Source of the DNA: JBFLXN01 sp040755715 [NCBI: Candidatus Edwardsbacteria bacterium]
GTDB lineage: Bacteria; Edwardsbacteria; AC1; JBFLXN01
DNA length: 10,810 bases
NCBI GenBank assembly: GCA_040755715.1
Contig: JBFLXN010000088.1
Location: 1-10,810, forward strand
Direction of reading: 5' to 3'
The stretch's first letter is position 1, and each line of letters starts with the position of its first letter. The translations under genes and the position numbers were made by a program. Shown here one piece after another: positions 1-10,559 of the stretch. The notes beneath the pieces are model-generated. The model saw only the letters and a program-made list of their open reading frames with translations, was not told the origin of the DNA and did no database searches.

Positions 1-57
1 CAGTGCCCGGAGCACTAACTCAAATTTCTTCTCTGGTGAGCATTTACTTTGATACAT
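1..57 (-). CDS. Transposase OrfA N-terminus (partial, runs off window)
   Basis: Nineteen codons are visible, from ATG at 57 down to the window edge. They read MYQSKCSPEKKFELVLRAL, which resembles the first helix of the helix-turn-helix domain in IS3-type OrfA proteins (pattern S-P-E-x-K-x-x-x-V). The start is well supported: AAAGGAGG lies 7 nt upstream on the minus strand, and TGGTATAAT lies about 20 nt further up. The fragment is too short to name the IS group. It could also belong to another HTH-type transposase family. Confidence 0.6.
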   Translation of the reverse strand, partial: MYQSKCSPEKKFELVLRAL

Positions 58-909: not shown

Positions 910-2175
910 ATGACTCAACTAGAAAGAAACAACACAGATATGCAAGAAGAAAATTTGTCGGGAGAAGAATTGGACATTGACATTTCTTCTGAATACGCTG
1001 AGTTGGAGACTGTTCTTGTTCATCGCCCGGGGAGAGAAATAGAAAGAGTCTTACCCTCAAATAAAGACTACTTGTTGTTTGATGATATTCCTTTTCTTCA
1101 AACAATGCAAAAAGAACATGACCTTTTTGTGGAGACGCTTACAAAACATTGTGATTGTCAGGTTTTATATATAGAGAAATTGCTGGAAGACATAATTTGT
1201 GATGAACAGATTCGAAAAAAGTTAGTTACTGAAATTGTTTCGGAAGAAAAGTGTAGAGGATTAGAAGAATACTTAAATAAAATAGATGATAATGAATTAA
1301 TTAACACGATTTTTTGTGGAATTACCTTTGATGAATGGGCAAATGTAATAGGTAAGCGGCCAAGATTTAGAGAAAGATTTATAATGCCACCAATTCCAAA
1401 TGCATATTTTGTCCGCGATCCAGCAGCTATAATTAAAGATACTATTGCTGCTTGCAAAATGCATTTCGACGTTAGAGTCAGAGAATCCATAATTCTAAGA
1501 TGTATATTTAAGTGGCATCCATTGTTCAAAAAAAAGAATAAATTCTGCTATGGGATTACTACAGACGAAGATAGGCCATTTACCGTTGAGGGCGGGGATA
1601 TAACTGTAATAAACCGAAATGCGATAGCAATTGGATGGAGTCAGAGAACAACTCCGGATGCCATAGAAAAAGTTGCTGTAAACTTGTTTGGAAAGGGGAT
1701 AATAGATAGAGTTTATGAAATAAAGATTCCATCGAGTAGAGCTTATATGCATCTTGATACGGTATTTACTATTGTTGGTCCAAATGTCGTAGTTGTATAT
1801 CCAGATGTTATTGATGAAGAGATTGAGACATCTATATATACCCCAACAAAGATTTATGGGCAAGTTAAAGCACATCTGTCCGAAAATATTACTACGAATT
1901 TTATTAGTTATCTTGAGACAGAACTCGGAAAACCACTTAAAATTGTTAAAACTGGTGATGGAAGTCTTACAGAGGCTGAGAGAGAACAATGGGCTGACGG
2001 CACTAATGTTCTTGCGATAAGTCCGAACAAAGTCATAACCTACGATAGAAATGTTTTGACTAATGAAGCATTAACAAAAGCTGGTGTAAACGTAATAACG
2101 GTTCCAGGAACAGAATTAGTGCGAGGACGAGGTGGTCCTAGATGTATGACTCTACCTATTAAGAGAAAAACATGA
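910..2175 (+). CDS. arcA: Arginine deiminase (divergent, complete)
   Basis: Arginine deiminase hydrolyses L-arginine to L-citrulline and ammonia in the cytoplasm, normally the first step of the arginine dihydrolase pathway. At 421 residues it has the usual family length. In order: LVHRPG (36-41), FDDIPF (57-62), FVRD with D170, EGGD with E227 and D230, HLDT with H281 and D283, and a C-terminal GRGGPRC with nucleophile C412. All residues of the Asp-Glu-His-Cys catalytic set are present. Region 170-225 is divergent compared with typical ArcA. The ATG at 910 has no SD but lies 27 nt after a TATA-like box; ATG 940 is an alternative start. No carbamate kinase, ornithine carbamoyltransferase or antiporter is nearby, so an ATP-yielding pathway is not evident. 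The stop overlaps the next gene (ATGA), implying a shared transcript. Activity on arginine within a peptide is conceivable given the RiPP neighbours, but unsupported. Confidence 0.9.
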   Translation: MTQLERNNTDMQEENLSGEELDIDISSEYAELETVLVHRPGREIERVLPSNKDYLLFDDIPFLQTMQKEHDLFVETLTKHCDCQVLYIEKLLEDIICDEQIRKKLVTEIVSEEKCRGLEEYLNKIDDNELINTIFCGITFDEWANVIGKRPRFRERFIMPPIPNAYFVRDPAAIIKDTIAACKMHFDVRVRESIILRCIFKWHPLFKKKNKFCYGITTDEDRPFTVEGGDITVINRNAIAIGWSQRTTPDAIEKVAVNLFGKGIIDRVYEIKIPSSRAYMHLDTVFTIVGPNVVVVYPDVIDEEIETSIYTPTKIYGQVKAHLSENITTNFISYLETELGKPLKIVKTGDGSLTEAEREQWADGTNVLAISPNKVITYDRNVLTNEALTKAGVNVITVPGTELVRGRGGPRCMTLPIKRKT

Positions 2176-3485
2176 ACTTTCAAAATAACATAAATGTTTG
2201 TGTCTGTGGCCATACTCAAATAGGCAAATCAACAATTGTTGGTAGATTGCTCGTGGAATTGGGAAAGATATCTTCCTCAGAACTCAAAAAATACAGAGAA
2301 AAAGCTTCTCTTTTAGGCGAAGAAAAACATGTGTACGCAATGTTGGTTCATACATCTAAAGAAGAGGATGAGATCAAAAAGACGCAATATCCATCATATG
2401 CTCGAATAGATTTCTCTAACAAAATAATAACCTTGATAGATACTCCTGGGCATCAAATCTATTACAAAAATATGATATTTGGAATTTTTCAAGCAGACTG
2501 CGCTATTTTAGTAGTAGAAGCCCCAAAAGGTCCTCAAGAAGAGACTTTTTCAGTTCTACGCATACTAAAAGGTTTTGATATCCCGATAATCTCTGTTGTA
2601 ATAACCAAAATGGATGAAATCCAATACGACATGGAAAAATTTGACAAAATAAAAATAGAAACAATAAAGGTGCTAGAACAGCACAATCTTGCCTCAGAAA
2701 ATATTAAGTTTATTCCAGTTTCTGGGCTAGAGGGAGAAGGATTAGTTAAACGTAATATTCTAAATATGAAAGACACTCTGTACACAATATTAAAAAATTT
2801 AACTATAAGAATCCTTAGAGAAGACTTCCCATTGCGAACAACAATGAGAAGGAGCAATATATTCAAACTTAAGGGAATAGGAACGGTTGGTGTTTGCGAA
2901 ATTGAATACGGGACTCTAAGAAAAAAAGATGAGCTTATTTTTGAACCTGTGAGCACAATATTAAATAAGAAAATTACTGCAAAAGTAAGGTCCATTCAAC
3001 TTGCAAAAGGAGTTATTGCGTCTCCGGCAGTTCCGATAGAACAAGCATACCCACGGAATATCGTGGGAGTTGCTATTCACAATTCTGAGCTTGACCTACA
3101 TGAACTACTGAGCCAGTGCAATAATATTGCAGGGTTGTCTTCTTGCCCACCCTCTGTAACTTCTTTCTTTGAAGCAGAAATAACAGTCGTGCACCATCCG
3201 GGGGTTATCCCTGTCGGCTATAAATGCATTTTGCATCCTCATGCGGATCAAGTTTCTGCGGAAATTGTTTCTATTTTGAAAAAATCGCGAGTAGGAACTA
3301 CAGAATATCTTGAAGATACAGGAGCTATTTCTTCTGGTGAACGGGCTATTGTCCAAATCAAATCTTCCAGGTCAGTTGCCATTGAAGAAAGTAATGTAAT
3401 TCCTTCATTAAGTAAATTTATTATTAGAACGTCGGGAATTCACGACATGATAATCGGTTTTGGTAAATGTATAAAAATTCTTTGA
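2172..3485 (+). CDS. EF-1A/CysN-like translational-type GTPase
   Basis: A 437-residue, three-domain GTPase of the EF-Tu/EF-1A superfamily. The G domain shows G1 GHTQIGKS (13-20), G3 DTPGH (90-94, keeping the His that activates water in EF-Tu), G4 TKMD (145-148, where most family members have NKMD) and G5 SGL (184-186). The switch I segment (about 45-80) is unlike the conserved RGIT region; Thr71 may be its threonine. Domain 2 (about 218-310) contains the GIGTVGV strand typical of EF-1A. Domain 3 (about 330-437) has HHPGVIPVGY, close to the HPG-x-I-x-x-GY motif of EF-1A, HBS1 and related proteins rather than bacterial EF-Tu. At this length with altered switch I it is a paralogue, not the housekeeping factor. 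Alternatives are a CysN-like protein (no CysD seen), an HBS1-like rescue factor, or a specialised factor working with the deiminase. It starts at an ATGA overlap with the deiminase, so translation is probably coupled. Confidence 0.8.
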   Translation: MNFQNNINVCVCGHTQIGKSTIVGRLLVELGKISSSELKKYREKASLLGEEKHVYAMLVHTSKEEDEIKKTQYPSYARIDFSNKIITLIDTPGHQIYYKNMIFGIFQADCAILVVEAPKGPQEETFSVLRILKGFDIPIISVVITKMDEIQYDMEKFDKIKIETIKVLEQHNLASENIKFIPVSGLEGEGLVKRNILNMKDTLYTILKNLTIRILREDFPLRTTMRRSNIFKLKGIGTVGVCEIEYGTLRKKDELIFEPVSTILNKKITAKVRSIQLAKGVIASPAVPIEQAYPRNIVGVAIHNSELDLHELLSQCNNIAGLSSCPPSVTSFFEAEITVVHHPGVIPVGYKCILHPHADQVSAEIVSILKKSRVGTTEYLEDTGAISSGERAIVQIKSSRSVAIEESNVIPSLSKFIIRTSGIHDMIIGFGKCIKIL

Positions 3486-3505: not shown

Positions 3506-3799
3506 CTAATTATTACTCACTAAATTATCTAACAGCCTAGAAGCTCTATTTTTTTCATTACTTATTAAGTTCAATATAATTCTAATTGTTTCTGATGTTG
3601 GACCGAGTGCTAATCCCATTTCGACTTTTTTGAAATAAGCTCTTTCTTTGTTAAGGTAATCTAAGTGATATGAAATTTCATTTTTTATATCTTGGATACT
3701 AATTTCCGCTTTGTTTTTTTCCTTTAATTTCTGGTAAAAGAAAGTTACATATTTACTATATTTTTTTTCAAGTTCTTTTATTAAAATTTGACGCGTCAT
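3506..3799 (-). CDS. Small hypothetical protein, helical, 97 residues
   Basis: No family is recognised. The product is Lys/Glu-rich and predicted largely helical, with heptad-like hydrophobic spacing in residues 8-60. It has no Cys, no transmembrane segment and no signal peptide. It is convergent with the GTPase (20 nt between stops) and divergent from the radical SAM operon, sharing an 89-nt intergenic region with a perfect palindrome. The position would suit a regulator, but no helix-turn-helix is visible. There is no SD before the ATG. A TATA-like CTTTTATATG lies only about 10 nt upstream, too close for a leaderless start at this ATG, so the start is uncertain. Chance ORFs of this length occur in AT-rich DNA, but the amino acid composition looks coding. 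Confidence 0.6.
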   Translation of the reverse strand: MTRQILIKELEKKYSKYVTFFYQKLKEKNKAEISIQDIKNEISYHLDYLNKERAYFKKVEMGLALGPTSETIRIILNLISNEKNRASRLLDNLVSNN

Positions 3800-3888: not shown

Positions 3889-4248
3889 GTGATAAAAGTC
3901 AAAAAGGAAGGCACATTGAAGGACAAAAGTGTCTCTTTTGAGAAGGTAAGAATAGGTCGTGAACCTCAAGGTATAGTCTCCATTATAGAAACTAATCGGA
4001 CAATTAAAAATATTAGGTTATTACCTGCTTGTTGCATTCGTTATTATGCAAAGAGGACTGCATTTTCGAATAACCTAACTGGCCGTGTCGCTATCCTCCA
4101 GCGAGGTTTGTCCCCAAAAATCGTTAAATCATTAGTATACGGTGTTCCTCTATCAAGCTTACTAGCAATGGCTAAACAAGAAGGGTGGAAGGATACGGAA
4201 TTCATAAATTTTATTGCAGAGTTAGTAGAAAGAGGAATGATAGCATAA
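3889..4248 (+). CDS. PqqD/RRE-like small protein, likely precursor-recognition partner
   Basis: The product has 119 residues. The C-terminal ~50 residues look like the winged-helix half of PqqD-type RiPP recognition elements: a helix around 75-84, a second around 88-98, then FINFIAELVERGMI matching the F-L-x-x-L-x-x-x-G-h-I ending of PqqD-like domains. The N-terminal half (about 10-65) contains CC at 48-49 and is not recognised. RREs bind the leader of the precursor and present it to the maturase, and the location directly upstream of a radical SAM/SPASM gene supports that role. In the Hxs systems the corresponding small partner is HxsD, but I cannot show homology. The stop overlaps the next start (TAATG), so translation is coupled. 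The start is GTG without an SD, chosen for its position 26 nt after the TATA-like box; the next internal Met is at residue 94. Confidence 0.55.
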   Translation: MIKVKKEGTLKDKSVSFEKVRIGREPQGIVSIIETNRTIKNIRLLPACCIRYYAKRTAFSNNLTGRVAILQRGLSPKIVKSLVYGVPLSSLLAMAKQEGWKDTEFINFIAELVERGMIA

Positions 4249-5576
4249 TGACTTCTGTCAAAGTTAAGCCATATGTACCTATAGTTGGGAAACGGGCTGT
4301 ATTGTTATTATCTCGCTGGGTTCCTTCTTGGATTCTTCTAAATAGAGACCTCTACAACAAACTTCAAAGAGGAGTCGTAGGAGAAGGTCTCGCACGTAAA
4401 CTCTACGCACGTGGCATGGCTTCTCTAAGGGGTGAAACACTACAGATTCCCAAGAAGGCAAGCTTCTCTCCACTTTACTTCGTCATTGATATCGCAGATA
4501 ACTGTAATTTGGCATGCACATATTGTGTTCGCCACCCTATGAAAAATCATCGCCTTTCTGATGAGAAACTTCGAGAAATTCTGAAGGACATTAAAAATAT
4601 TGCTGCCCACGGAAACAACGAAATCTTTATTCAACCTTTTGGTGGCGAACCTCTATTGGCTTTAGACCAGATTCTTAAGATCGATGAATTTTTTCAATTT
4701 CATGGAATTCCACATACTATCACTATTCAAACCAACGGGACACTTATATCCCTATATACAGCAAAACTAATGTGGCAGCGAGGTTTTCAGATTAGTTTAA
4801 GCATTGATGGAAACAAGAGCACACATGACATCCATCGTATTACAGCAAGCGGAAAGGGAAGTTTCTTATCAGTTTTACGAGGATTTAATTATTTACGAGA
4901 TGCTGGCTACCCTGCAGAATCCATCGGTATTCTTACAACATTAACTCGCCCATTACTCACAAGGCTTGAAGAAGTTGTAGATTTCTTTGTCAACTCTCTA
5001 GGAGCTAACTCATTTCGCCTAGCTTATCCCTATTTGATAAGACCACAAATGGCTTTCGACTTCGTAACCCCAAAGGAGTATGCAGAAGTAGCATACTATT
5101 TAATTACAATCGCGCGAAATAAGGCTCAAGAAGGTAAAAAACTAATAGAAGCAGCCTTATCCTCGCGGGTCAAGGGATTTCTCAATAATGATATACAAGA
5201 TATCTGCTGGTCTGGACCTTGTCGTATGGGATATCGAATGATAGCTTACGATATTGAGGGAAACCGATATCCTTGCTCCGAGCTTACAGGATTACAATTA
5301 TATCAAATTGGGCACGCTCTCGATGGACTTGAAGAGGAACCTGATAGACTTGAAAGAGTTATCTCAGACTTTCATCGTCGATCTTTTAACCATTTGTGTG
5401 ATGAATGTATTTATTTACCATGGTGCGGTGGAGGCTGCAGAATGTGGAGTATTTATGGTCGGTTTCAGAATTATTCAAGACTCGACTATGTATGTGCTTT
5501 CACCAAAGTGGTAATTGACGAAGTTATACAGTGTATGGTAGATGGAAAAATGGATTTACTAGAGTGTCTACAATGA
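4248..5576 (+). CDS. Radical SAM/SPASM peptide maturase (HxsB-like)
   Basis: A 442-residue enzyme expected to cleave SAM with a 4Fe-4S cluster and modify the precursor peptide encoded downstream. Residues 1-70 (SRWVPSWILLNRDLY and following) look like the N-terminal wing of peptide-modifying radical SAM proteins and may be a fused RRE. The SAM cluster motif is C86-x3-C90-x2-C93, and the SAM-binding GGEP is at 132-135. The SPASM domain has C325-x12-G338-x4-C343, then C384-x2-C387-x5-C393-x3-C397 and C416, with C320 as an extra possible ligand: a full set for two auxiliary clusters. Length and layout match HxsB-type and other RiPP cyclophane or thioether maturases. The start at 4248 is chosen because it overlaps the previous stop (TAATG); an upstream in-frame ATG at 4185 would overlap the previous gene by 64 nt. 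Its stop overlaps the next gene (ATGA). The bond it forms cannot be told from sequence. Confidence 0.85.
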   Translation: MTSVKVKPYVPIVGKRAVLLLSRWVPSWILLNRDLYNKLQRGVVGEGLARKLYARGMASLRGETLQIPKKASFSPLYFVIDIADNCNLACTYCVRHPMKNHRLSDEKLREILKDIKNIAAHGNNEIFIQPFGGEPLLALDQILKIDEFFQFHGIPHTITIQTNGTLISLYTAKLMWQRGFQISLSIDGNKSTHDIHRITASGKGSFLSVLRGFNYLRDAGYPAESIGILTTLTRPLLTRLEEVVDFFVNSLGANSFRLAYPYLIRPQMAFDFVTPKEYAEVAYYLITIARNKAQEGKKLIEAALSSRVKGFLNNDIQDICWSGPCRMGYRMIAYDIEGNRYPCSELTGLQLYQIGHALDGLEEEPDRLERVISDFHRRSFNHLCDECIYLPWCGGGCRMWSIYGRFQNYSRLDYVCAFTKVVIDEVIQCMVDGKMDLLECLQ

Positions 5577-6475
5577 CTAGTATGTATTGTTCATTAGGCT
5601 ATAAGTGCAACAATAACTGCTTAACTTGTCCCATAGACCCTAAGTTACGCGAAACTGCATTTGTAAAGGAGAAACAGATTCGGGATTTTATAGAGGCTAG
5701 GGGAATAGGCGTAGGCGATAAAATAACCTTCAGCGGTGGTGAGCCAACGTTGTACCCGAAGTTGATATCTCTAACGCGGTGGTGTGCAGAACTATTGGGT
5801 TCAGAAGTCGAAATTCTTACTAATGCTCGTTGTCTTGCCAACAGTCATTTGGCTGAAGCTTTGTCTGAGATTCATAGAGTTCAAATTACCACAGCTATCT
5901 ATAGTTCTGAGAGGGAACTACACGACCAGATTACTCGTCGAAAAGCAAGTTTTGACGAAACCATTTCTGGAATTACCCAAGCCCTGTCATACGGTATCAG
6001 GGTTGTCCTAAAAACTGTTATCAGTAAACTTAACTACCGCCTACTTCCGGACATTTTTGCCATGCTACTACAACGCTTTCCACAAGTAGATGACTTTATA
6101 GTCTATGGCACAGATTGGACAGGTAACGCACTAAGAAACATTTCTATACTATTTATCTCCAATTCTGAAATAGCTCCATTCTTGGAAGAAGCTGCTTTTA
6201 GAGTAACCGATGCTGGGAAGACCATCCAGATTCGTCTTTTCCCTTTATGTTTATTAGACCCCGCACTATGGCCCCTTGCTATTGATACTTATCCAAATGA
6301 GGCTGCGGGCGATTGTCTGTTCACTCCTGAGTCAGAGATTGTAGATTTTGAGATTCCAGCAGCCCACGTTCAAAAACAGTGTGAGTGTTGCTTGATTCAA
6401 CGATTCTGTGGCCAAACCTGGGATAGCTATTTTGATGTGTTTGGTAGTCACGAACTGTGCCACATACACTTATAA
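5573..6475 (+). CDS. Second radical SAM enzyme of the RiPP operon (HxsC-like)
   Basis: A 300-residue radical SAM protein. The cluster motif sits very near the N-terminus, C12-x3-C16-x2-C19, with SGGEPTL at 54-60 and a barrel strand IYSSERELHD (109-118) followed by ASFDETISGI (125-134), a pattern common in peptide-associated radical SAM enzymes. The C-terminus has a short Cys cluster, C270-x2-C273-x5-C279-G with C248 and C296 nearby, suggesting one auxiliary Fe-S cluster (SPASM-like or twitch). There is no fused RRE, so it may rely on the small protein or the first maturase to recognise its substrate. Two different radical SAM enzymes with one repetitive substrate recall HxsB plus HxsC. Start ATG 5573 overlaps the upstream stop (ATGA); the upstream in-frame ATG 5531 is less likely. 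The order of modification and the reaction are unknown. Confidence 0.85.
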   Translation: MTSMYCSLGYKCNNNCLTCPIDPKLRETAFVKEKQIRDFIEARGIGVGDKITFSGGEPTLYPKLISLTRWCAELLGSEVEILTNARCLANSHLAEALSEIHRVQITTAIYSSERELHDQITRRKASFDETISGITQALSYGIRVVLKTVISKLNYRLLPDIFAMLLQRFPQVDDFIVYGTDWTGNALRNISILFISNSEIAPFLEEAAFRVTDAGKTIQIRLFPLCLLDPALWPLAIDTYPNEAAGDCLFTPESEIVDFEIPAAHVQKQCECCLIQRFCGQTWDSYFDVFGSHELCHIHL

Positions 6476-6476
6476 A

Positions 6477-6483
6477 AAGGAGG
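6477..6483 (+). promoter_or_regulatory. Strong Shine-Dalgarno before the precursor peptide
   Basis: AAGGAGG lies 6 nt before ATG 6490, in the only true gap of the operon. The upstream operon genes have no SD and start by overlap or leaderless. The site fixes 6490 as the start, rather than the in-frame ATG 6457 inside the previous gene. It implies that the substrate peptide is made in excess of its enzymes. Confidence 0.8.
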
Positions 6484-6489
6484 CATATC

Positions 6490-6666
6490 ATGAAATTGGA
6501 ACTTTTTTCAAAACGTGCAGGGCGAAAGATTCTCGTGGACCTCGAGAACCTTACACAGCAAGAAATTGAGAATCCTCTTCGCTACGGTGGTCCGGTAGCT
6601 CGAACTTGGGGAAAGAGTTGGGGAAAATCTTGGGGAAAAAGCTGCGGCAAAAGGCCGAAACAATAA
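6490..6666 (+). CDS. RiPP precursor peptide with Trp-Gly-Lys-Ser repeats
   Basis: The peptide has 58 residues and follows two radical SAM genes directly. Residues 1-34 look like a leader: charged, with a helix-prone LVDLENLTQQEIENPL (15-30) and a YGG at 32-34 that could mark leader removal. Residues 35-58 are the probable core: a short linker, then WGKSWGKSWGKSCGK (40-54) and the tail RPKQ. That is three exact WGKS units plus a fourth with Cys for Trp. The core is strongly basic and Trp-rich. By analogy with darobactin (Trp-Ser-Lys), streptide (Lys-to-Trp) and triceptides (aromatic-x-x), the Trp-Gly-Lys units are candidate cross-link sites; this is inference. The repeat pattern resembles HxsA (His-x-Ser repeats), but I recognise no named family. 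The three Ser codons are AGT, TCT and AGC, so the repeat is kept at protein level. No protease or exporter gene is seen in the window. Confidence 0.8.
   Translation: MKLELFSKRAGRKILVDLENLTQQEIENPLRYGGPVARTWGKSWGKSWGKSCGKRPKQ
6607..6651 (+). repeat. Tandem 12-bp repeat encoding WGKS units
   Basis: Units begin at 6607, 6619 and 6631, each starting TGGGGAAA or TGGGGAAG, with a degenerate fourth unit at 6643-6651 (TGCGGCAAA). Three GGGG tracts fall in exact 12-bp register. The unit number could change by slippage, altering the number of modified motifs in the peptide. Confidence 0.85.
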
Positions 6667-6882
6667 TCAACAAAATTTGAGCCCGACCTTGCGGGTTGAA
6701 CAGTCACGAGCCGCAGTTGTTTAGATACATTTTGCACAGAACCCTAAAGCCATGACGTTTCATATTGTAGCGTACACTAGAATTATTTGAAAACTCAAGT
6801 TCTTTCATGCCAACAACCTTCGTTCTAGCATAATAGACAATTTGCCTACAACCCTTTTAATCTCCCCTAAACTCAATCATGA
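6667..6882. other. Non-coding gap after the precursor gene
   Basis: No plus-strand gene is seen. A weak hairpin (AGCCCG 6680-6685 with CGGGTT 6692-6697, 6-nt loop) just after the precursor stop may mark the transcript end, but no T-run follows. A minus-strand frame open from about 6857 to 6704 encodes a short peptide without an SD and is probably a relic or chance. The last 30 nt hold a TATA-like sequence for the next operon. Base composition changes across this gap. Confidence 0.4.
6854..6862 (+). promoter_or_regulatory. TATA-like box before the helical-protein/ATPase operon
   Basis: CTTTTAATC is centred about 25 nt before ATG 6883, and no SD lies between. It follows the leaderless pattern seen at 878 and 3859 but matches the TATA consensus less well. 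Confidence 0.25.
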
Positions 6883-7386
6883 ATGGATTCCCTAAAAAGA
6901 GGCTTTTATCCTGATTTAGAACAATCTGTTCAATCCATTGTTTCTTCTGAAGAAAACATTCCATCAGAGTCTTTAGAAAAAATCTTCTCTGATAAAACGA
7001 AAGTTCTGAAAGCCACAATAAAGCAAATCTTCAATGAGATTAACTTGAGACTAAAGGTAGATTCTGATATAATCAACAGCGTAGACGAAGATATCTGTAA
7101 ATGTGATGGTTATCTTGAACAAATCAGAGACCATTGCCAAAGAGATTATTCTTTGCAGATGACTTTAGCTTTCATGCCAAGACGAAACCATCTTGAAACT
7201 CAAGTCTTTGACTTAGAAAAACAAAAAAGACAAGAGCTTTTGGAATGCTGGCGTGATATGAGCTTCTTGAAAAAATATCTAATGTCTGCCTTATCAGAAT
7301 ATTGGACTTTAAGCAAAAGGCAAGAACTACTTGCTTCTGAGCTAACAGAAGACTTAGAAAATGATGAAAACAATGGAAATCTTTGA
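6883..7386 (+). CDS. Helical hypothetical protein upstream of HerA-like ATPase
   Basis: A 167-residue protein I do not recognise. It is rich in Leu, Glu, Lys and Gln and predicted almost wholly helical. Likely coiled-coil stretches are at about 28-60 and 100-160. A short Cys-rich patch, CKC (72-74) with C85, could bind metal, but the spacing is not a known zinc finger. There is no signal peptide or membrane segment. Its 3' end overlaps the ATPase start by up to 26 nt, so the two are translationally coupled and probably work together. Small helical partners are common next to HerA-type ATPases, for example as adaptors or nuclease partners; NurA itself is not evident here (no acidic catalytic motif). 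Confidence 0.6.
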   Translation: MDSLKRGFYPDLEQSVQSIVSSEENIPSESLEKIFSDKTKVLKATIKQIFNEINLRLKVDSDIINSVDEDICKCDGYLEQIRDHCQRDYSLQMTLAFMPRRNHLETQVFDLEKQKRQELLECWRDMSFLKKYLMSALSEYWTLSKRQELLASELTEDLENDENNGNL

Positions 7387-9373
7387 GACTTGCCAGAAAC
7401 TAAAGCCAATTATTGGCAAAAAGGCAGATAAACTCTGGCATTGTTATCTTGCCGAAGACGAAAAAGGAAGAAAAGACCTGGCTTTAGACATTGAAATTAT
7501 CGCTGAGAAACTGCTCAGAAAAGTGCCTTTACAAAATGAACCCATTCTATTACAACCACCTTCCCCACCTCAAGCTTCAGGTGAATTTCTTCTCGGAGAT
7601 ATTATCTACAATGACAAGAAAGTTTCTCAACTATATCTTAGGCAAGAAGATTTTATAAAACAAATAGGTATTTTCAGCATAACCGGAGAAGGTAAGACAA
7701 ACCTTGCTTTCTTATTAGCATTACAACTTCTGAAAAAGAAAATACCCTTTCTTGTTGTTGATTGGAAGAGAAGCTGGCGAGACCTCTTGTCATTATCAGA
7801 CAAATTTCCAGAATTGAATAACTTGCAAATTTTCACAGTAGGCAGAGACATTGCACCTTTTTATTGGAACCCCTTCAGAGCACCACCGAACATTCATTAC
7901 AAGAGCTGGATTTCTGTGGTTACAGAAGTCTTAGAAAAGTCACACCTTGCAGGCTTTGGTGTGGCTGATTTTTTTATCAAAATCTATGAAAAGTTGTTCA
8001 AAGAATTCAGATTCAGAAACGGAAATAACAATAACACAATCTATCCTAATTTCTTTGACGGCTCACACGAATTAAGCATGCTAAAAGTCTATGCCAGAGA
8101 ACTCTTATGGAAACAATCTGCTGGCAGAGTCTTCAAAAGCTTCACCTTCGGACCAAGTCATAAAGCCTTTAACTCCAGACAGCCAATAAAACTTGAAAAC
8201 TTACTTCAAAAACCAGTAATTCTTGAACTTGACCAAGAAATGAGCAAACCACTAAGAACATTCTTCACAGAAATGATTCTAAGATTTATTCATCTTTACA
8301 GACTAACTCAAGGTGAAACAGAAAAGTTAAGACATGTCCTTTTCCTAGAAGAGATTCACAACTTATTTCCAAAGACAAGAATAGAGCAAGAACACTTTAG
8401 CAGTTTAGAATATGTCTATAGAGAGATTAGAGCATTTGCTCAAGGACTTGTCAGCATAACTCAACATCCCTCTTTATTACCAATCTACATTCTTGGTAAC
8501 TGTCATACTCAAATATTCTTAGGCTTACAGCATGAAAGAGATGTTCGCTCAGCCAGAGAATCTTTATTCATAAAGCCAGAACAAGAAAACTATCTTGACA
8601 AACTCAAGATAGGAGAAGGCATAGTAAAGATAAAAGCAAGGATTCAGCCTTGCCTTGTCAAGTTCCCTTTAGTGCCAATAGAAAAAGGAACTATCACTGA
8701 TGAAGCTATAAAACTGAGGAACGGACTTTCCACACTTTCCAAGCCCGAAATCAAGAAACACAAGCTAATTAGACACTTTCCACAAAAGGATAATATAGAT
8801 ACACAAACTAAAAGATTTCTTGAAGATATAGTAACTTATCCTCTTTCATCGTTAGTAACAAGATATAAAAGACTAAACTTAAGCATGAGAAACGGCAATG
8901 AATTAAAAAACAAGGCACTTTCAAAAGGTCTAATCATTCCAAAAAGGATAATAACAAAGAAAACCCAACTTGTCTTAATTGAACTAACAGCAAAAAGCAA
9001 AGCAATCTTAAGACAATTAGGCTATGAAATAACAGATGAAAAAGAAGGCATTGAGCATAGGTTTTGGAAAGAAAAGATAGCAGAATATTACACAAACAAA
9101 GGCTATAAAGTAGAAATAGAAAGACAAATCAATGGACAAGCAGACATAGTCGTAGAGAATAAAGACAAGAAAATAGCCATAGAAATAGAAACAGGAAACT
9201 CTGACGCAATAGAAAACATAAGAAAAGCCCTCAAATCAAAATTTGATACTATAATTTCAGTTCCAACAAATATCACTGTTCAAGAAAACATAAAACAACA
9301 ATTAAAAGACGAGATGTTAGACAAAGACGAAAGAATTAAAGTAGTTTTAGCCCAAGCCTTTGACTTCACATAA
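7361..9373 (+). CDS. HerA/VirB4-like ATPase with winged helix and PD-(D/E)XK-like domain
   Basis: A 670-residue DNA-pumping-type ATPase. The Walker A region is SITGEGKT (106-113), with Ser in place of the usual first Gly/Ala. FLVVDWKRS (130-138) follows the core strand, as in HerA/VirB4 proteins. Walker B is VLFLEEIHN (326-334, catalytic E330/E331). ITQHPSLLP (366-374) and GNCHTQIFLGL (379-389) match the sensor region (TQ-x-P ... NC-x-T-x-I) of HerA-FtsK ATPases. After the ATPase comes a probable winged helix (about 480-555). The C-terminal domain (about 565-640) has D595 and E608-x-E610 in the layout of a PD-(D/E)XK nuclease, with Thr where the catalytic Lys usually sits, so activity is uncertain. 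Such fusions occur in archaeal and mobile-element proteins. The likely role is DNA translocation for element transfer, processing or defence. Starts at 7361, 7364 and 7373 are possible, all overlapping the upstream gene. Confidence 0.75.
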   Translation: MMKTMEIFETCQKLKPIIGKKADKLWHCYLAEDEKGRKDLALDIEIIAEKLLRKVPLQNEPILLQPPSPPQASGEFLLGDIIYNDKKVSQLYLRQEDFIKQIGIFSITGEGKTNLAFLLALQLLKKKIPFLVVDWKRSWRDLLSLSDKFPELNNLQIFTVGRDIAPFYWNPFRAPPNIHYKSWISVVTEVLEKSHLAGFGVADFFIKIYEKLFKEFRFRNGNNNNTIYPNFFDGSHELSMLKVYARELLWKQSAGRVFKSFTFGPSHKAFNSRQPIKLENLLQKPVILELDQEMSKPLRTFFTEMILRFIHLYRLTQGETEKLRHVLFLEEIHNLFPKTRIEQEHFSSLEYVYREIRAFAQGLVSITQHPSLLPIYILGNCHTQIFLGLQHERDVRSARESLFIKPEQENYLDKLKIGEGIVKIKARIQPCLVKFPLVPIEKGTITDEAIKLRNGLSTLSKPEIKKHKLIRHFPQKDNIDTQTKRFLEDIVTYPLSSLVTRYKRLNLSMRNGNELKNKALSKGLIIPKRIITKKTQLVLIELTAKSKAILRQLGYEITDEKEGIEHRFWKEKIAEYYTNKGYKVEIERQINGQADIVVENKDKKIAIEIETGNSDAIENIRKALKSKFDTIISVPTNITVQENIKQQLKDEMLDKDERIKVVLAQAFDFT

Positions 9374-9492
9374 ATCAAATCTAAAAATCTCTCGCCAAAC
9401 TTTTCCCTCGGAAGATAAATTTCTCTCTCAAAAATCCTTTCACTATCCTTTATTTACCTTTACTTCCCAATAGAAACATTGCTTACAAACCA

Positions 9493-9599: not shown

Positions 9600-9682
9600 C
9601 CATGATAAGAATAAAAGAAATAGTCCTAAAACCAAGAAATTTTCAATACTGATTTATTAGCTCAATTCTAAAAAACACAATA

Positions 9683-9765
9683 GAGGAAGCAGATTATCTC
9701 TTCTTGCTTGATTGTTTTTGGCGGGGGCAACAACAGCAATAAGAACTTTGCTTCCTCATTTTTTT
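9683..9765 (+). ncRNA. Long compound hairpin ending in a T-tract (leader RNA or terminator)
   Basis: GAGGAAGCAGA (9683-9693) pairs with TTTGCTTCCTC (9747-9757), 11 bp with one G-U. Inside, TTGCT (9704-9708) pairs with AGCAA (9735-9739), and TTGTT (9712-9716) with AACAA (9729-9733), leaving a G-rich apical loop with GGCGGGGGC. These are three nested, collinear helices. T7 (9759-9765) follows directly, like an intrinsic or oligo-T terminator, and the next gene's SD begins 13 nt later. It could be an attenuator or riboswitch-like leader, or a terminated small RNA. The ligand and family are unknown. Confidence 0.45.
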
Positions 9766-9789
9766 CAACAGAGCAAGAAAGGAGGAGCC

Positions 9790-10512
9790 ATGCAAGATTC
9801 AAAGATGAATTCATTAAGAGAACAAGAAATATCTCAGTTGCTAAAAGAACTTGAAGAAAGAGAAGACACATACGACATAAGATTCTGGCCAAACAAAGAG
9901 ATTACAAGAAAAACAATAGAAATGATTGCAAAGAAAAAATTTCCAAATGGGTTCAATGCTCTTTATCTCAGCAGGACAGTATATCTGATAGAAAGAATTG
10001 TTGAATTAGGTGGAACAATAGAATCAATCTATTCAGCTCTTTCTCCAAATATTAAGGAGCAATGCAGAAGAAAAGCTGGATACTGGGAACAAGGAATTCA
10101 ATCTTATAAGGCAAAGATACAAGAGGCAATGGAACAACAAGATAGATTTGAAGTAAAAAGACTATCAAAACTCGCAATGCGGTCTTATGAAGAATATCTC
10201 TTGTTTTGCAAGTTCGCACAGACAGAACCTCAAGAAACTCAGAATTTTATCTCAGAGGCAGAAGCTCATTTAGAGACTTGCAGAGACGATAAAGAAAACA
10301 ACAAAGCCAATAGCGAAGACAAAACTGGTAAAGATAATACAGACACAAACTTTGACTACCTTGGAAGATTTCCAGAAAAGCCAGCAACAGACAAACAGAT
10401 AAATCTCTTAAGAAATCTTTCCAGTCAGAAATCATTTACAATCAATCAAGACATCACAAAACTCACAAGAAAAGAAGCAAGCCAGTTGATTAGTCAATTG
10501 TTGAATAGATAA
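9790..10512 (+). CDS. Hypothetical protein with C-terminal K-Q-I-x-x-L domain
   Basis: A 240-residue protein, function unknown. The start at 9790 is chosen for the strong SD AAAGGAGG (9778-9785); a longer in-frame reading from TTG 9712 would run through the hairpin and is rejected. Residues 10-165 are helical and charged. A low-complexity acidic/Asn linker spans about 165-188. The last 40 residues (PATDKQINLLRNL ... LTRKEASQLI) match a small helical module often seen at the C-terminus of phage, plasmid and integrative-element proteins, in the pattern T-x-K-Q-h-x-h-h-x-x-L ... h-T-x-x-E-A-S-x-L-I. That module suggests mobile-element cargo rather than housekeeping. No catalytic motif, signal peptide or membrane segment is visible. 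Confidence 0.7.
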   Translation: MQDSKMNSLREQEISQLLKELEEREDTYDIRFWPNKEITRKTIEMIAKKKFPNGFNALYLSRTVYLIERIVELGGTIESIYSALSPNIKEQCRRKAGYWEQGIQSYKAKIQEAMEQQDRFEVKRLSKLAMRSYEEYLLFCKFAQTEPQETQNFISEAEAHLETCRDDKENNKANSEDKTGKDNTDTNFDYLGRFPEKPATDKQINLLRNLSSQKSFTINQDITKLTRKEASQLISQLLNR

Positions 10513-10559
10513 GAAAGGATTTACACAGCAAGGAAAACAAGTGAGATATAACCACAATC

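What the first reader, a model, noticed from the sequence alone, without database searches (positions are those of the whole stretch)
3889..6666. Two-radical-SAM RiPP operon with a WGKS-repeat precursor
The sequence shows an RRE-like gene, two different radical SAM genes and a short repeat-ended peptide, joined by overlaps of 1-4 nt and expressed in one direction. The layout parallels His-Xaa-Ser (Hxs) systems, but the repeated unit is Trp-Gly-Lys-Ser, a motif I cannot assign to a named family. Inferred product: a basic Trp-rich peptide with one modification per repeat. This is the best candidate for an undescribed system in the window.
Basis: partly seen in the sequence, partly recalled or inferred. 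Interest (0 to 1): 0.9.

Follow-up and report, generated by a model that had tools for sequence, protein, structure and literature searches.

The report
Two-enzyme operon for Trp-Gly-Lys-Ser repeat peptide
A small operon appears to make a modified peptide: two different radical enzymes are encoded beside a short peptide ending in Trp-Gly-Lys-Ser repeats, and they most likely stitch each tryptophan to the lysine two residues on, an arrangement not found described in the papers searched.

Summary
The operon is real: ORF1 (3889-4248), radical SAM 1 (4248-5576), radical SAM 2 (5573-6475) and, 14 nt on behind a strong ribosome site, a 58-residue peptide (6490-6666) ending WGKSWGKSWGKS-CGK. The three units differ only by synonymous changes, which points to selection on the peptide.
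rSAM2 is HxsC-like (135.8 bits; cut-off 267.9) and the gene order D-B-C-A is that of a His-Xaa-Ser locus. But rSAM2 lies outside the canonical HxsC clade, rSAM1 is no closer to HxsB than to PapB or DynA, ORF1 is not HxsD, and there are no HxS repeats. It is Hxs-like, not a member.
A second locus (L204, viral contigs) has the same kinds of genes. Its rSAM1 is the sister of this one (98/95, long branches), and its two precursors have Trp-rich cores: W-x-H and W-x-N where the window has W-x-K. The window's motif is the S-W-G-K of tryglysin and the W-x-K of darobactin, both known Trp-Lys cross-links.
Best reading: a Trp-type branch of paired HxsB/HxsC-like RiPP systems that cross-links W to K in each repeat. 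The chemistry, ORF1's role, the product's function and the host are not shown.

The parts
3889..4248 (+). ORF1, 119 aa (or from TTG 3916), helper gene in the position of HxsD; possibly a leader-binding (RRE-like) protein
   Evidence: Open frame, 1-nt overlap with rSAM1. No family match for the whole protein. 11-21% identity to four HxsD with two invariant columns. PqqD-profile score above 0 of 200 shuffles but weak: 11.78, shuffle maximum 11.65, hhalign probability about 1%. AF2 model without alignment has mean pLDDT 53.5; only the C-terminal helices from about residue 70 on are confident.
4248..5576 (+). rSAM1, 442 aa: N-terminal RRE-like domain (by model) + radical SAM core (CNLACTYC) + SPASM domain; presumed cross-linking enzyme
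   Evidence: PapB 126.1, DynA 122.5, HxsB 109.6 bits, all below cut-off. SPASM model TIGR04085 42.9 bits over a cut-off of 27 for residues 230-442. AF2 model pLDDT 74.2, residues 10-54 beta-beta-beta-helix-helix. Alignments to 5why start at residue 7 (Z 31.2, 388 aligned, 4.9 A) and to TigE 8vpo at residue 1 (Z 24.2, 382 aligned, 3.9 A).
5573..6475 (+). rSAM2, 300 aa: short HxsC-like radical SAM enzyme (CNNNCLTC; C226 and CxxCx5C at 270/273/279 as presumed auxiliary-cluster ligands)
   Evidence: TIGR03977 HxsC 135.8 bits, cut-off 267.9. The cysteines named are invariant in an alignment with six canonical HxsC. Trees.
6477..6483 (+). Shine-Dalgarno sequence AAGGAGG of the peptide gene
   Evidence: Sequence; 6 nt before the ATG at 6490.
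6490..6666 (+). Precursor peptide gene, 58 aa
   Evidence: Translation. No family match.
6490..6603 (+). Presumed leader, 38 aa (MKLELFSKRAGRKILVDLENLTQQEIENPLRYGGPVAR)
   Evidence: Resembles the leader of the L204 precursor (first 38 aa of each: 47 of 5000 shuffles reach the score); the boundary is inferred.
6607..6642 (+). Three WGKS units (6607-6618, 6619-6630, 6631-6642), presumed sites of Trp-Lys cross-links
6643..6663 (+). Degenerate fourth unit CGKR and tail PKQ

Best explanation
This is a RiPP operon of a non-canonical, Trp-type branch of paired HxsB/HxsC-like systems. rSAM1 binds the 38-residue leader through its own N-terminal RRE-like domain (perhaps helped by ORF1) and, with its SPASM clusters, joins Trp(i) to Lys(i+2) in each WGKS unit, giving up to three small rings in a row. 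rSAM2, the HxsC-like partner, adds a second change per unit or acts on the same ring. A host protease then removes the leader and frees a short, basic, Trp-rich peptide. Shown by sequence: the gene set, the coupling, the enzyme families, the repeat and its conservation at protein level, and a second locus of the same gene kinds with Trp-rich precursors. Inferred: leader binding, the W-to-K bond, the division of labour between the enzymes, and cleavage. The biological function is unknown; the core charge of +6 with three Trp would suit an antibacterial peptide, which is a guess.
For: Two translationally coupled radical SAM genes with HxsC (135.8 bits) and PapB/DynA/HxsB (110-126 bits) as best models; the core half of rSAM1 scores best with the cyclophane maker YhhB (65.1), then DynA and PapB (61.2 each). 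Same order as hxsD-B-C-A. The repeat is protein-conserved: only synonymous differences, reached in 1 of 100,000 draws under a simple neutral model. L204 has an HxsC-like, a small and an HxsB-like gene plus short precursors; its rSAM1 pairs with the window's, 98/95. L204 cores GWSHGGWNN and GWAHAGWIN, with the window's WGK, follow W-x-[K/H/N], the spacing of a three-residue aromatic cross-link. Known W-x-K precedents: tryglysin VNSWGKH with WgkB and the RRE protein WgkC (PMC8092268, passages) and darobactin Trp51-Lys53 (PMC9055067, passages). The rSAM1 model aligns along nearly its whole length with the RiPP maturases 5why (CteB, name recalled) and TigE.
Against: No chemistry is shown. rSAM1's best family, PapB, makes thioethers and its closest structure is anSME, a Ser/Cys oxidase, so a fold match does not fix the reaction. 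WgkB scores only 18.4 bits on rSAM1's residues 230-442 and 26.9 on rSAM2. The leader resemblance to L204 is modest: 47 of 5000 shuffles for the leader, 191 of 5000 for the whole peptide. ORF1 and the small L204 gene show no similarity (2744 of 5000 shuffles; no BLASTP alignment). The rSAM1 tree joins two long branches (warning), and the rSAM2 tree does not pair the window with L204. The L204 precursors have no WGxS, and its HxsC-like frame is cut by a TGA. The N-terminal part of the rSAM1 model is barely tested by the structure list (note) and the alignment behind it holds HxsB proteins.
Confidence: 0.55

Rival explanations
1. A true but divergent His-Xaa-Ser system in which Trp replaced His. 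The two enzymes do whatever HxsB and HxsC do, which may not be cross-linking; the listings of my searches showed no paper on the Hxs product.
For: Gene order and HxsC as best model. L204's rSAM1 has HxsB as its best model over nearly full length, 144.8 bits. Ser recurs in each repeat, as in HxS.
Against: HxsC and HxsB cut-offs not met; no HxsD; no HxS repeat; the period is 4, not 3; canonical HxsC forms a separate clade without the window, 100/99.
Confidence: 0.2
2. The enzymes oxidise the repeat Ser residues (to formylglycine or aminomalonate), as anaerobic sulfatase maturases do, and the Trp and Lys are only recognition residues.
For: The rSAM1 model's top structural matches are anSME (Z 33) and anSME is also its best match by sequence in the PDB; Ser is in each unit and Cys follows the last Ser.
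Against: The best sequence families are peptide maturases. In L204 the recurring part is W-x-[H/N], while Ser is not regular.
Confidence: 0.12
3. A ranthipeptide-like thioether from the single Cys of the fourth unit (S-C-G-K) to another residue.
For: PapB is rSAM1's best family, 126.1 bits.
Against: One Cys cannot account for three conserved Cys-free repeats; L204's precursor cores have no Cys.
Confidence: 0.06
4. The repeat is a chance 12-bp DNA minisatellite and the ORF is not a gene.
Against: Units differ only synonymously (1 of 100,000 neutral draws) and stand behind a strong ribosome site and a leader that resembles another precursor's.
Confidence: 0.03

Closest known systems
His-Xaa-Ser (Hxs) systems: HxsA/B/C/D
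   Same: Two different radical SAM genes, HxsB-like and HxsC-like, in one operon with a small helper in front and a repeat peptide behind; order D-B-C-A as in the Klebsiella locus.
   Different: Repeat is W-G-K-S with period 4, not H-x-S with period 3; short peptide without the hydrophobic N-terminus seen by eye in HxsA peptides; ORF1 is not HxsD; both enzymes are below cut-off and outside the canonical groups.
WGK subfamily of streptococcal RaS-RiPPs (tryglysins, WgkABC)
   Same: S-W-G-K core motif; radical SAM enzyme plus a separate small protein (there an RRE protein); tryglysin A carries a -4 Da modification at Trp-Gly-Lys (PMC8092268, passages).
   Different: One WGK versus three tandem units; one radical SAM versus two; rSAM1 and rSAM2 are not WgkB (18.4 bits on residues 230-442 and 26.9 bits, cut-off 650); no Rgg regulator or transporter among the window genes scanned.
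Darobactin (DarA/DarE) and triceptides
   Same: C-C bond between Trp51 and Lys53 in darobactin, Ser following the Lys (PMC9055067, passages; the residue between is Ser by recall); L204's rSAM1 scores DarW 79.9 and DarE 66.1 bits.
   Different: Darobactin also has a Trp-Trp ether and a single enzyme; no transporter genes recognised here; rSAM1 is below the cut-off of every cross-linker model listed.
TVGG-repeat RiPP (TvgA/TvgB)
   Same: Tandem short repeat modified unit by unit by a radical SAM enzyme (PMC9062424, passages).
   Different: Different repeat, one radical SAM enzyme, cyclopropylglycine product.

Membership tests
Hxs system | HxsC (TIGR03977) above cut-off 267.9 | tested here: not met
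   135.8 bits, though the best of all models for rSAM2
Hxs system | HxsB (TIGR03978) above cut-off 370 | tested here: not met
   109.6 bits, third after PapB and DynA
Hxs system | HxsD partner | tested here: not met
   ORF1 has no NCBIfam match at E up to 10 and 11-21% identity to four HxsD with 2 invariant columns
Hxs system | HxsA-type peptide with His-Xaa-Ser repeats | tested here: not met
   WGKS repeats, no His in the peptide
Hxs system | rSAM2 within the canonical HxsC clade | tested here: not met
   Canonical rows form a clade without the window: 13 of the 14 rows I labelled HxsC, 100/99; 13 of 13, 100/99
Tryglysin / WGK RaS-RiPP | WGK motif in the precursor | tested here: met
   One TWGK and two SWGK units; tryglysin A VNSWGKH
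Tryglysin / WGK RaS-RiPP | WgkB (NF050035) maturase | tested here: not met
   18.4 bits for rSAM1 residues 230-442, 26.9 for rSAM2, cut-off 650; not among the best 25 shown for whole rSAM1
Tryglysin / WGK RaS-RiPP | -4 Da Trp-Lys tetrahydrobenzindole | not testable with these tools
   Needs mass spectrometry and NMR
Three-residue cyclophane (triceptide) RiPPs | Aromatic-x-x motif in the core (motif rule recalled) | tested here: met
   W-G-K here; W-S-H, W-N-N, W-A-H, W-I-N in L204
Three-residue cyclophane (triceptide) RiPPs | Membership of a named cyclophane-forming maturase family | tested here: not met
   YhhB 95.4 of 445, GrrM/OscB 74.1 of 310, FxsB 66.0 of 370, AmcB 60.2 of 425
RRE-containing maturase (rSAM1) | N-terminal winged-helix-like beta-beta-beta-alpha domain | tested here: inconclusive
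   AF2: strands 10-13, 17-21, 28-32, helices 33-40, 46-54; block pLDDT 54-76 for residues 11-60. Alignments to 5why and 8vpo begin at residues 7 and 1, but a range gives end residues only. No Pfam or NCBIfam match for residues 1-81
RRE protein (ORF1) | PqqD-like profile match | tested here: inconclusive
   hhalign score 11.78, probability about 1%, 0 of 200 shuffles as high (maximum 11.65); HMMER 2.8 bits; no PqqD hit in Pfam

The most novel reading that the evidence does not exclude
An undescribed class of RiPP: a Trp-type branch of paired HxsB/HxsC-like enzymes that work along a precursor repeat by repeat, one joining Trp to the i+2 residue (Lys here; His or Asn in the L204 relative) and the other adding a second bond or oxidation. 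The product would be a chain of three tryglysin-like or darobactin-like rings, and the system would give a readable repeat-by-repeat handle on what the uncharacterised Hxs enzyme pair does.
Probability: 0.35. Interest if true: 0.78.

Novelty: new variant of a known kind. Interest (0 to 1): 0.62.

Why it matters
In the search listings seen here no paper describes the product of Hxs systems, although tblastn with rSAM2 met hundreds of plasmid records, mostly annotated hxsC among the 20 listed. A compact relative with a clean, Trp-bearing, tandem substrate would let the roles of the HxsB-like and HxsC-like enzymes be tested one by one, and could give poly-cyclic Trp-Lys peptides of the kind that make tryglysin and darobactin active.

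Tried and rejected
No whole genome is held for the window, so its host is unknown. ADI, HerA-like and EF-1-alpha-like proteins gave only plasmid matches under 60% identity and two other probes none. The peptide itself gave no plasmid match (BLAST's low-complexity filter was on), and the operon DNA no phage match.

The only genome-contig scan went to a DNA pattern for three WGxS-like units. With hindsight a protein query would have been the better use. A two-unit pattern gave 25 viral stretches, likewise without a relative.

The genome search with rSAM2 in ten calls (35, 37, 40-43, 46, 52, 53, 74; 1,381 genome searches in all, some genomes more than once, with differing E cut-offs) found canonical HxsC and more distant paralogues, best 120.9 bits in a Planctomycetota genome, and no match close enough to be the same system. 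I looked at neighbourhoods of the best matches only, not of every match. rSAM1 in 398 genomes of one phylum: none at 1e-30. In some searches nothing rang, which by the tool's own note shows nothing. No archaeal centre was at hand.

Viral scans for rSAM2 alone, rSAM1 alone and the HerA-like gene found no relative. Of the 8 loci only L251, the same contig as L204, has an HxsC-like neighbour. The pattern for the L204 core met that contig only.

Rows and labels: I labelled L184 as HxsC without checking its neighbours and it fell elsewhere; I labelled L182_2371 'other SPASM' and it fell inside the HxsB group (93/99, not starred). In one search the window sat on the HxsC side (90/72); it sat on the other side of the 100/99 branch with L204, Planctomycetota and Myxococcota rows, so its exact place is unsure. 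From the 47 loci, 15 were examined (L204-L217 and L227), and of these L204 and five canonical HxsC rows went into the tree.

ORF1's model was too poor to search with profit (53.5 pLDDT; six Foldseek matches, none with E under 0.001). Thioether, Ser oxidation and DNA-repeat readings are treated under rivals. WGKS motifs in viral contigs L006, L011 and L025 were judged unrelated.


Full report
WHAT IS THERE. Between 3889 and 6666 four genes lie on the plus strand. ORF1 (119 aa) ends with a stop that overlaps the ATG of rSAM1 by 1 nt. rSAM1 (442 aa) ends with a stop that overlaps the ATG of rSAM2 by 4 nt (ATGA). rSAM2 (300 aa) is followed after 14 nt by a 58-residue ORF at 6490 behind AAGGAGG. 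Such overlaps suggest coupled translation of one messenger (established knowledge). The neighbouring ORFs (3506-3799 on the minus strand; 6883 onwards) are set apart from it. Promoter-like sites are no more frequent than in shuffles (7 against a mean of 9.7).

THE PEPTIDE. MKLELFSKRAGRKILVDLENLTQQEIENPLRYGGPVAR-TWGKSWGKSWGKSCGKRPKQ. Its repeat is the only tandem array listed for the window. The three WGKS units differ by 2-3 nucleotides and no residue; the middle unit has Ser as TCT, the others as AGT and AGC. When 2 and 3 random changes were put into two copies of the unit, both still read WGKS in 1 of 100,000 draws (a simple star model with one unit as ancestor). So the protein sequence, not the DNA, seems to be kept. 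A fourth unit reads CGKR. The presumed core has charge +6.

THE ENZYMES. Both match Pfam Radical_SAM above cut-off (60.0 and 56.5 bits). rSAM2's best NCBIfam model by far is HxsC (135.8 bits; cut-off 267.9), then HxsC4 (80.2). rSAM1 scores PapB 126.1, DynA 122.5 and HxsB 109.6, all far below cut-offs. Its SPASM part passes the general SPASM model (42.9 bits over 27), and its core half scores best with YhhB (65.1; 'cyclophane-forming' by the model's name), then DynA and PapB (61.2 each). An AlphaFold2 model of rSAM1 on 13 aligned sequences, HxsB among them (mean pLDDT 74.2), has three strands and two helices in residues 10-54, then the radical SAM and SPASM parts. VIA-align gives anSME Z 33 (from residue 74), 5why Z 31.2 from residue 7 and TigE Z 24.2 from residue 1; the tool notes that parts outside residues 69-432 are barely tested. 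That 5why is CteB, and that CteB and TigE carry an N-terminal RRE, is recalled. So rSAM1 probably carries its own leader-binding domain: a shape inference at moderate confidence.

ORF1. It sits where hxsD sits but does not align with HxsD (11-21% identity, two invariant columns). A profile built from 13 PqqD domains scores it above 0 of 200 shuffles, yet only just (11.78 against 11.65), with an hhalign probability of about 1% and 2.8 bits in HMMER. Its last 61 residues have one sub-threshold helix-turn-helix match (12.5 bits, cut-off 27).

RELATION TO HXS. Six plasmid loci of canonical Hxs were read; the Klebsiella one has order D-B-C-A with overlaps of 1-8 nt. HxS repeat peptides were found in 11 of the 14 loci I had labelled canonical (two of the three misses are stretches of under 4 kb), for example HYSHYSHSSHYSHYSHHS in L174. 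In trees the canonical HxsC rows form a clade that excludes the window's rSAM2 with 100/99 support. Its nearest rows by path are short HxsC-like enzymes in tandem in two Planctomycetota genomes (25-30% identity); a filter for short ORFs with aromatic or repeat tails found no WGxS peptide beside them. Five Hxs features were tested and not met (see the membership table), so it is filed as Hxs-like only.

A SECOND LOCUS. A scan of viral contigs with the HxsC alignment met L204 (contig IMGVR_UViG_3300021431_003109). There, on one strand, lie a 54-residue precursor (4748-4912), an HxsC-like gene (5001-5861; HxsC 116.6 bits), a small gene (5888-6199) and an HxsB-like gene (6196-7581; HxsB 144.8 bits over nearly full length). 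The last is the best rSAM1 relative found: 147 bits, residues 13-402. In a tree of 21 rows it is the sister of the window's rSAM1 with 98/95, outside the HxsB group, though both branches are long and the program warns of it. The HxsC-like enzymes of the two loci fall in the same half of their tree but are not paired. The two L204 precursors end GWSHGGWNNSGGGANW and GWAHAGWINHGSGGDSW and are clearly related to each other (0 of 5000 shuffles); the window leader KLELFSKRAGRKILVDLE resembles ELEIYSEKLGAMVKVSEE at the same position (47 of 5000; whole peptides 191 of 5000). The small L204 gene shows no likeness to ORF1 (2744 of 5000). Gene order differs: A-C-small-B in L204, small-B-C-A in the window.

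MECHANISM. Across the two loci the recurring feature is Trp followed two residues later by Lys, His or Asn. Radical SAM peptide maturases are known to make such bonds: in darobactin between Trp51 and Lys53 (PMC9055067, abstract and passages) and in tryglysin at the Trp-Gly-Lys of VNSWGKH, with loss of 4 Da, by WgkB with the RRE protein WgkC (PMC8092268, passages; PMC13361665, passages). The window peptide holds W-G-K three times, twice after Ser as in tryglysin A. I therefore take rSAM1 to be the cross-linking enzyme and rSAM2 to add a second step; the split of labour is inference. WgkB itself is not close to either enzyme (18.4 and 26.9 bits), so a tryglysin-type bond would be convergent or very old.

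NOVELTY. Searches for WGKSWGK or SWGKSWG anywhere in the held papers gave none; the listings of searches on HxsB/HxsC/HxsA/HxsD showed no paper on the product; the library lacks most subscription journals. One paper describes a different cluster with a His-Xaa-Ser motif whose enzymes are not HxsB/HxsC (PMC9062424, passages). I rate it a new variant of a known kind: radical SAM RiPPs and paired HxsB/HxsC are known, while the Trp-type branch with two enzymes and tandem WGKS units is not described in what I could search.

LIMITS. One window and one distant relative; neither host is known; no close homologue was found in the genomes that could be reached; the chemistry rests on motif and family analogy.

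Noticed in passing
L204:5859-5918: The HxsC-like frame of the relative stops at a TGA directly after the last conserved Cys, and the open frame that follows resembles by eye the C-terminus of the window's rSAM2. Either broken or recoded; the next gene there ends in TGA normally.
   Followed up: partly
L204:1817-2728, 8143-9024, 9620-10534; precursor 9208-9441: Three more radical-SAM-like genes (matches below cut-offs) and a second Trp-rich precursor on the same contig: perhaps a large RiPP cluster in a contig classed as viral.
   Followed up: partly
L175-L178 (genome G016, Myxococcales MAG_56): One genome has 16 matches to the HxsC-like enzyme, several as neighbouring pairs, some in frames of 600 residues or more; no precursor recognised.
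   Followed up: partly
L171, L172 (G770, G820, Planctomycetota): Two and three HxsC-like short radical SAM genes in tandem, near a gene that looks like a prepilin peptidase (recalled resemblance, not tested).
   Followed up: partly
G001:C22:15287-16237: An HxsC-like radical SAM match and a PqqD-domain match lie side by side on one strand, each in an open frame of 501 residues, in a Chloroflexi genome; probably a natural fusion of RRE and HxsC-like enzyme.
   Followed up: no
window 1-57 (minus strand) and 185-673: What looks like the start of an IS3-type transposase gene (recalled) next to a piece of a SPASM radical SAM gene (CbpB 26.6 bits): perhaps remains of another maturase.
   Followed up: no
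window 910-2175 and 2172-3485: An arginine deiminase (380.1 and 398.6 bits, below both cut-offs of 489.1 and 414) overlaps by 4 nt an EF-1-alpha-like GTPase of archaeal type (258.9 bits, cut-off 502); an odd pair.
   Followed up: partly
window 7361-9373: HerA/DUF87-like ATPase (30.3 bits, cut-off 23.2) with a borderline C-terminal nuclease-like match (CoiA, 20.4 bits, cut-off 20.3), perhaps a mobile-element or defence gene.
   Followed up: partly
L174:638-4648: The hxsB of this canonical Hxs locus appears interrupted by a two-gene insertion.
   Followed up: no
L006, L011, L025 (viral contigs): Frames with MSSAWGKSWGKSWG recur in three viral contigs; no relative of either radical SAM enzyme in the held flanks.
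   Followed up: no
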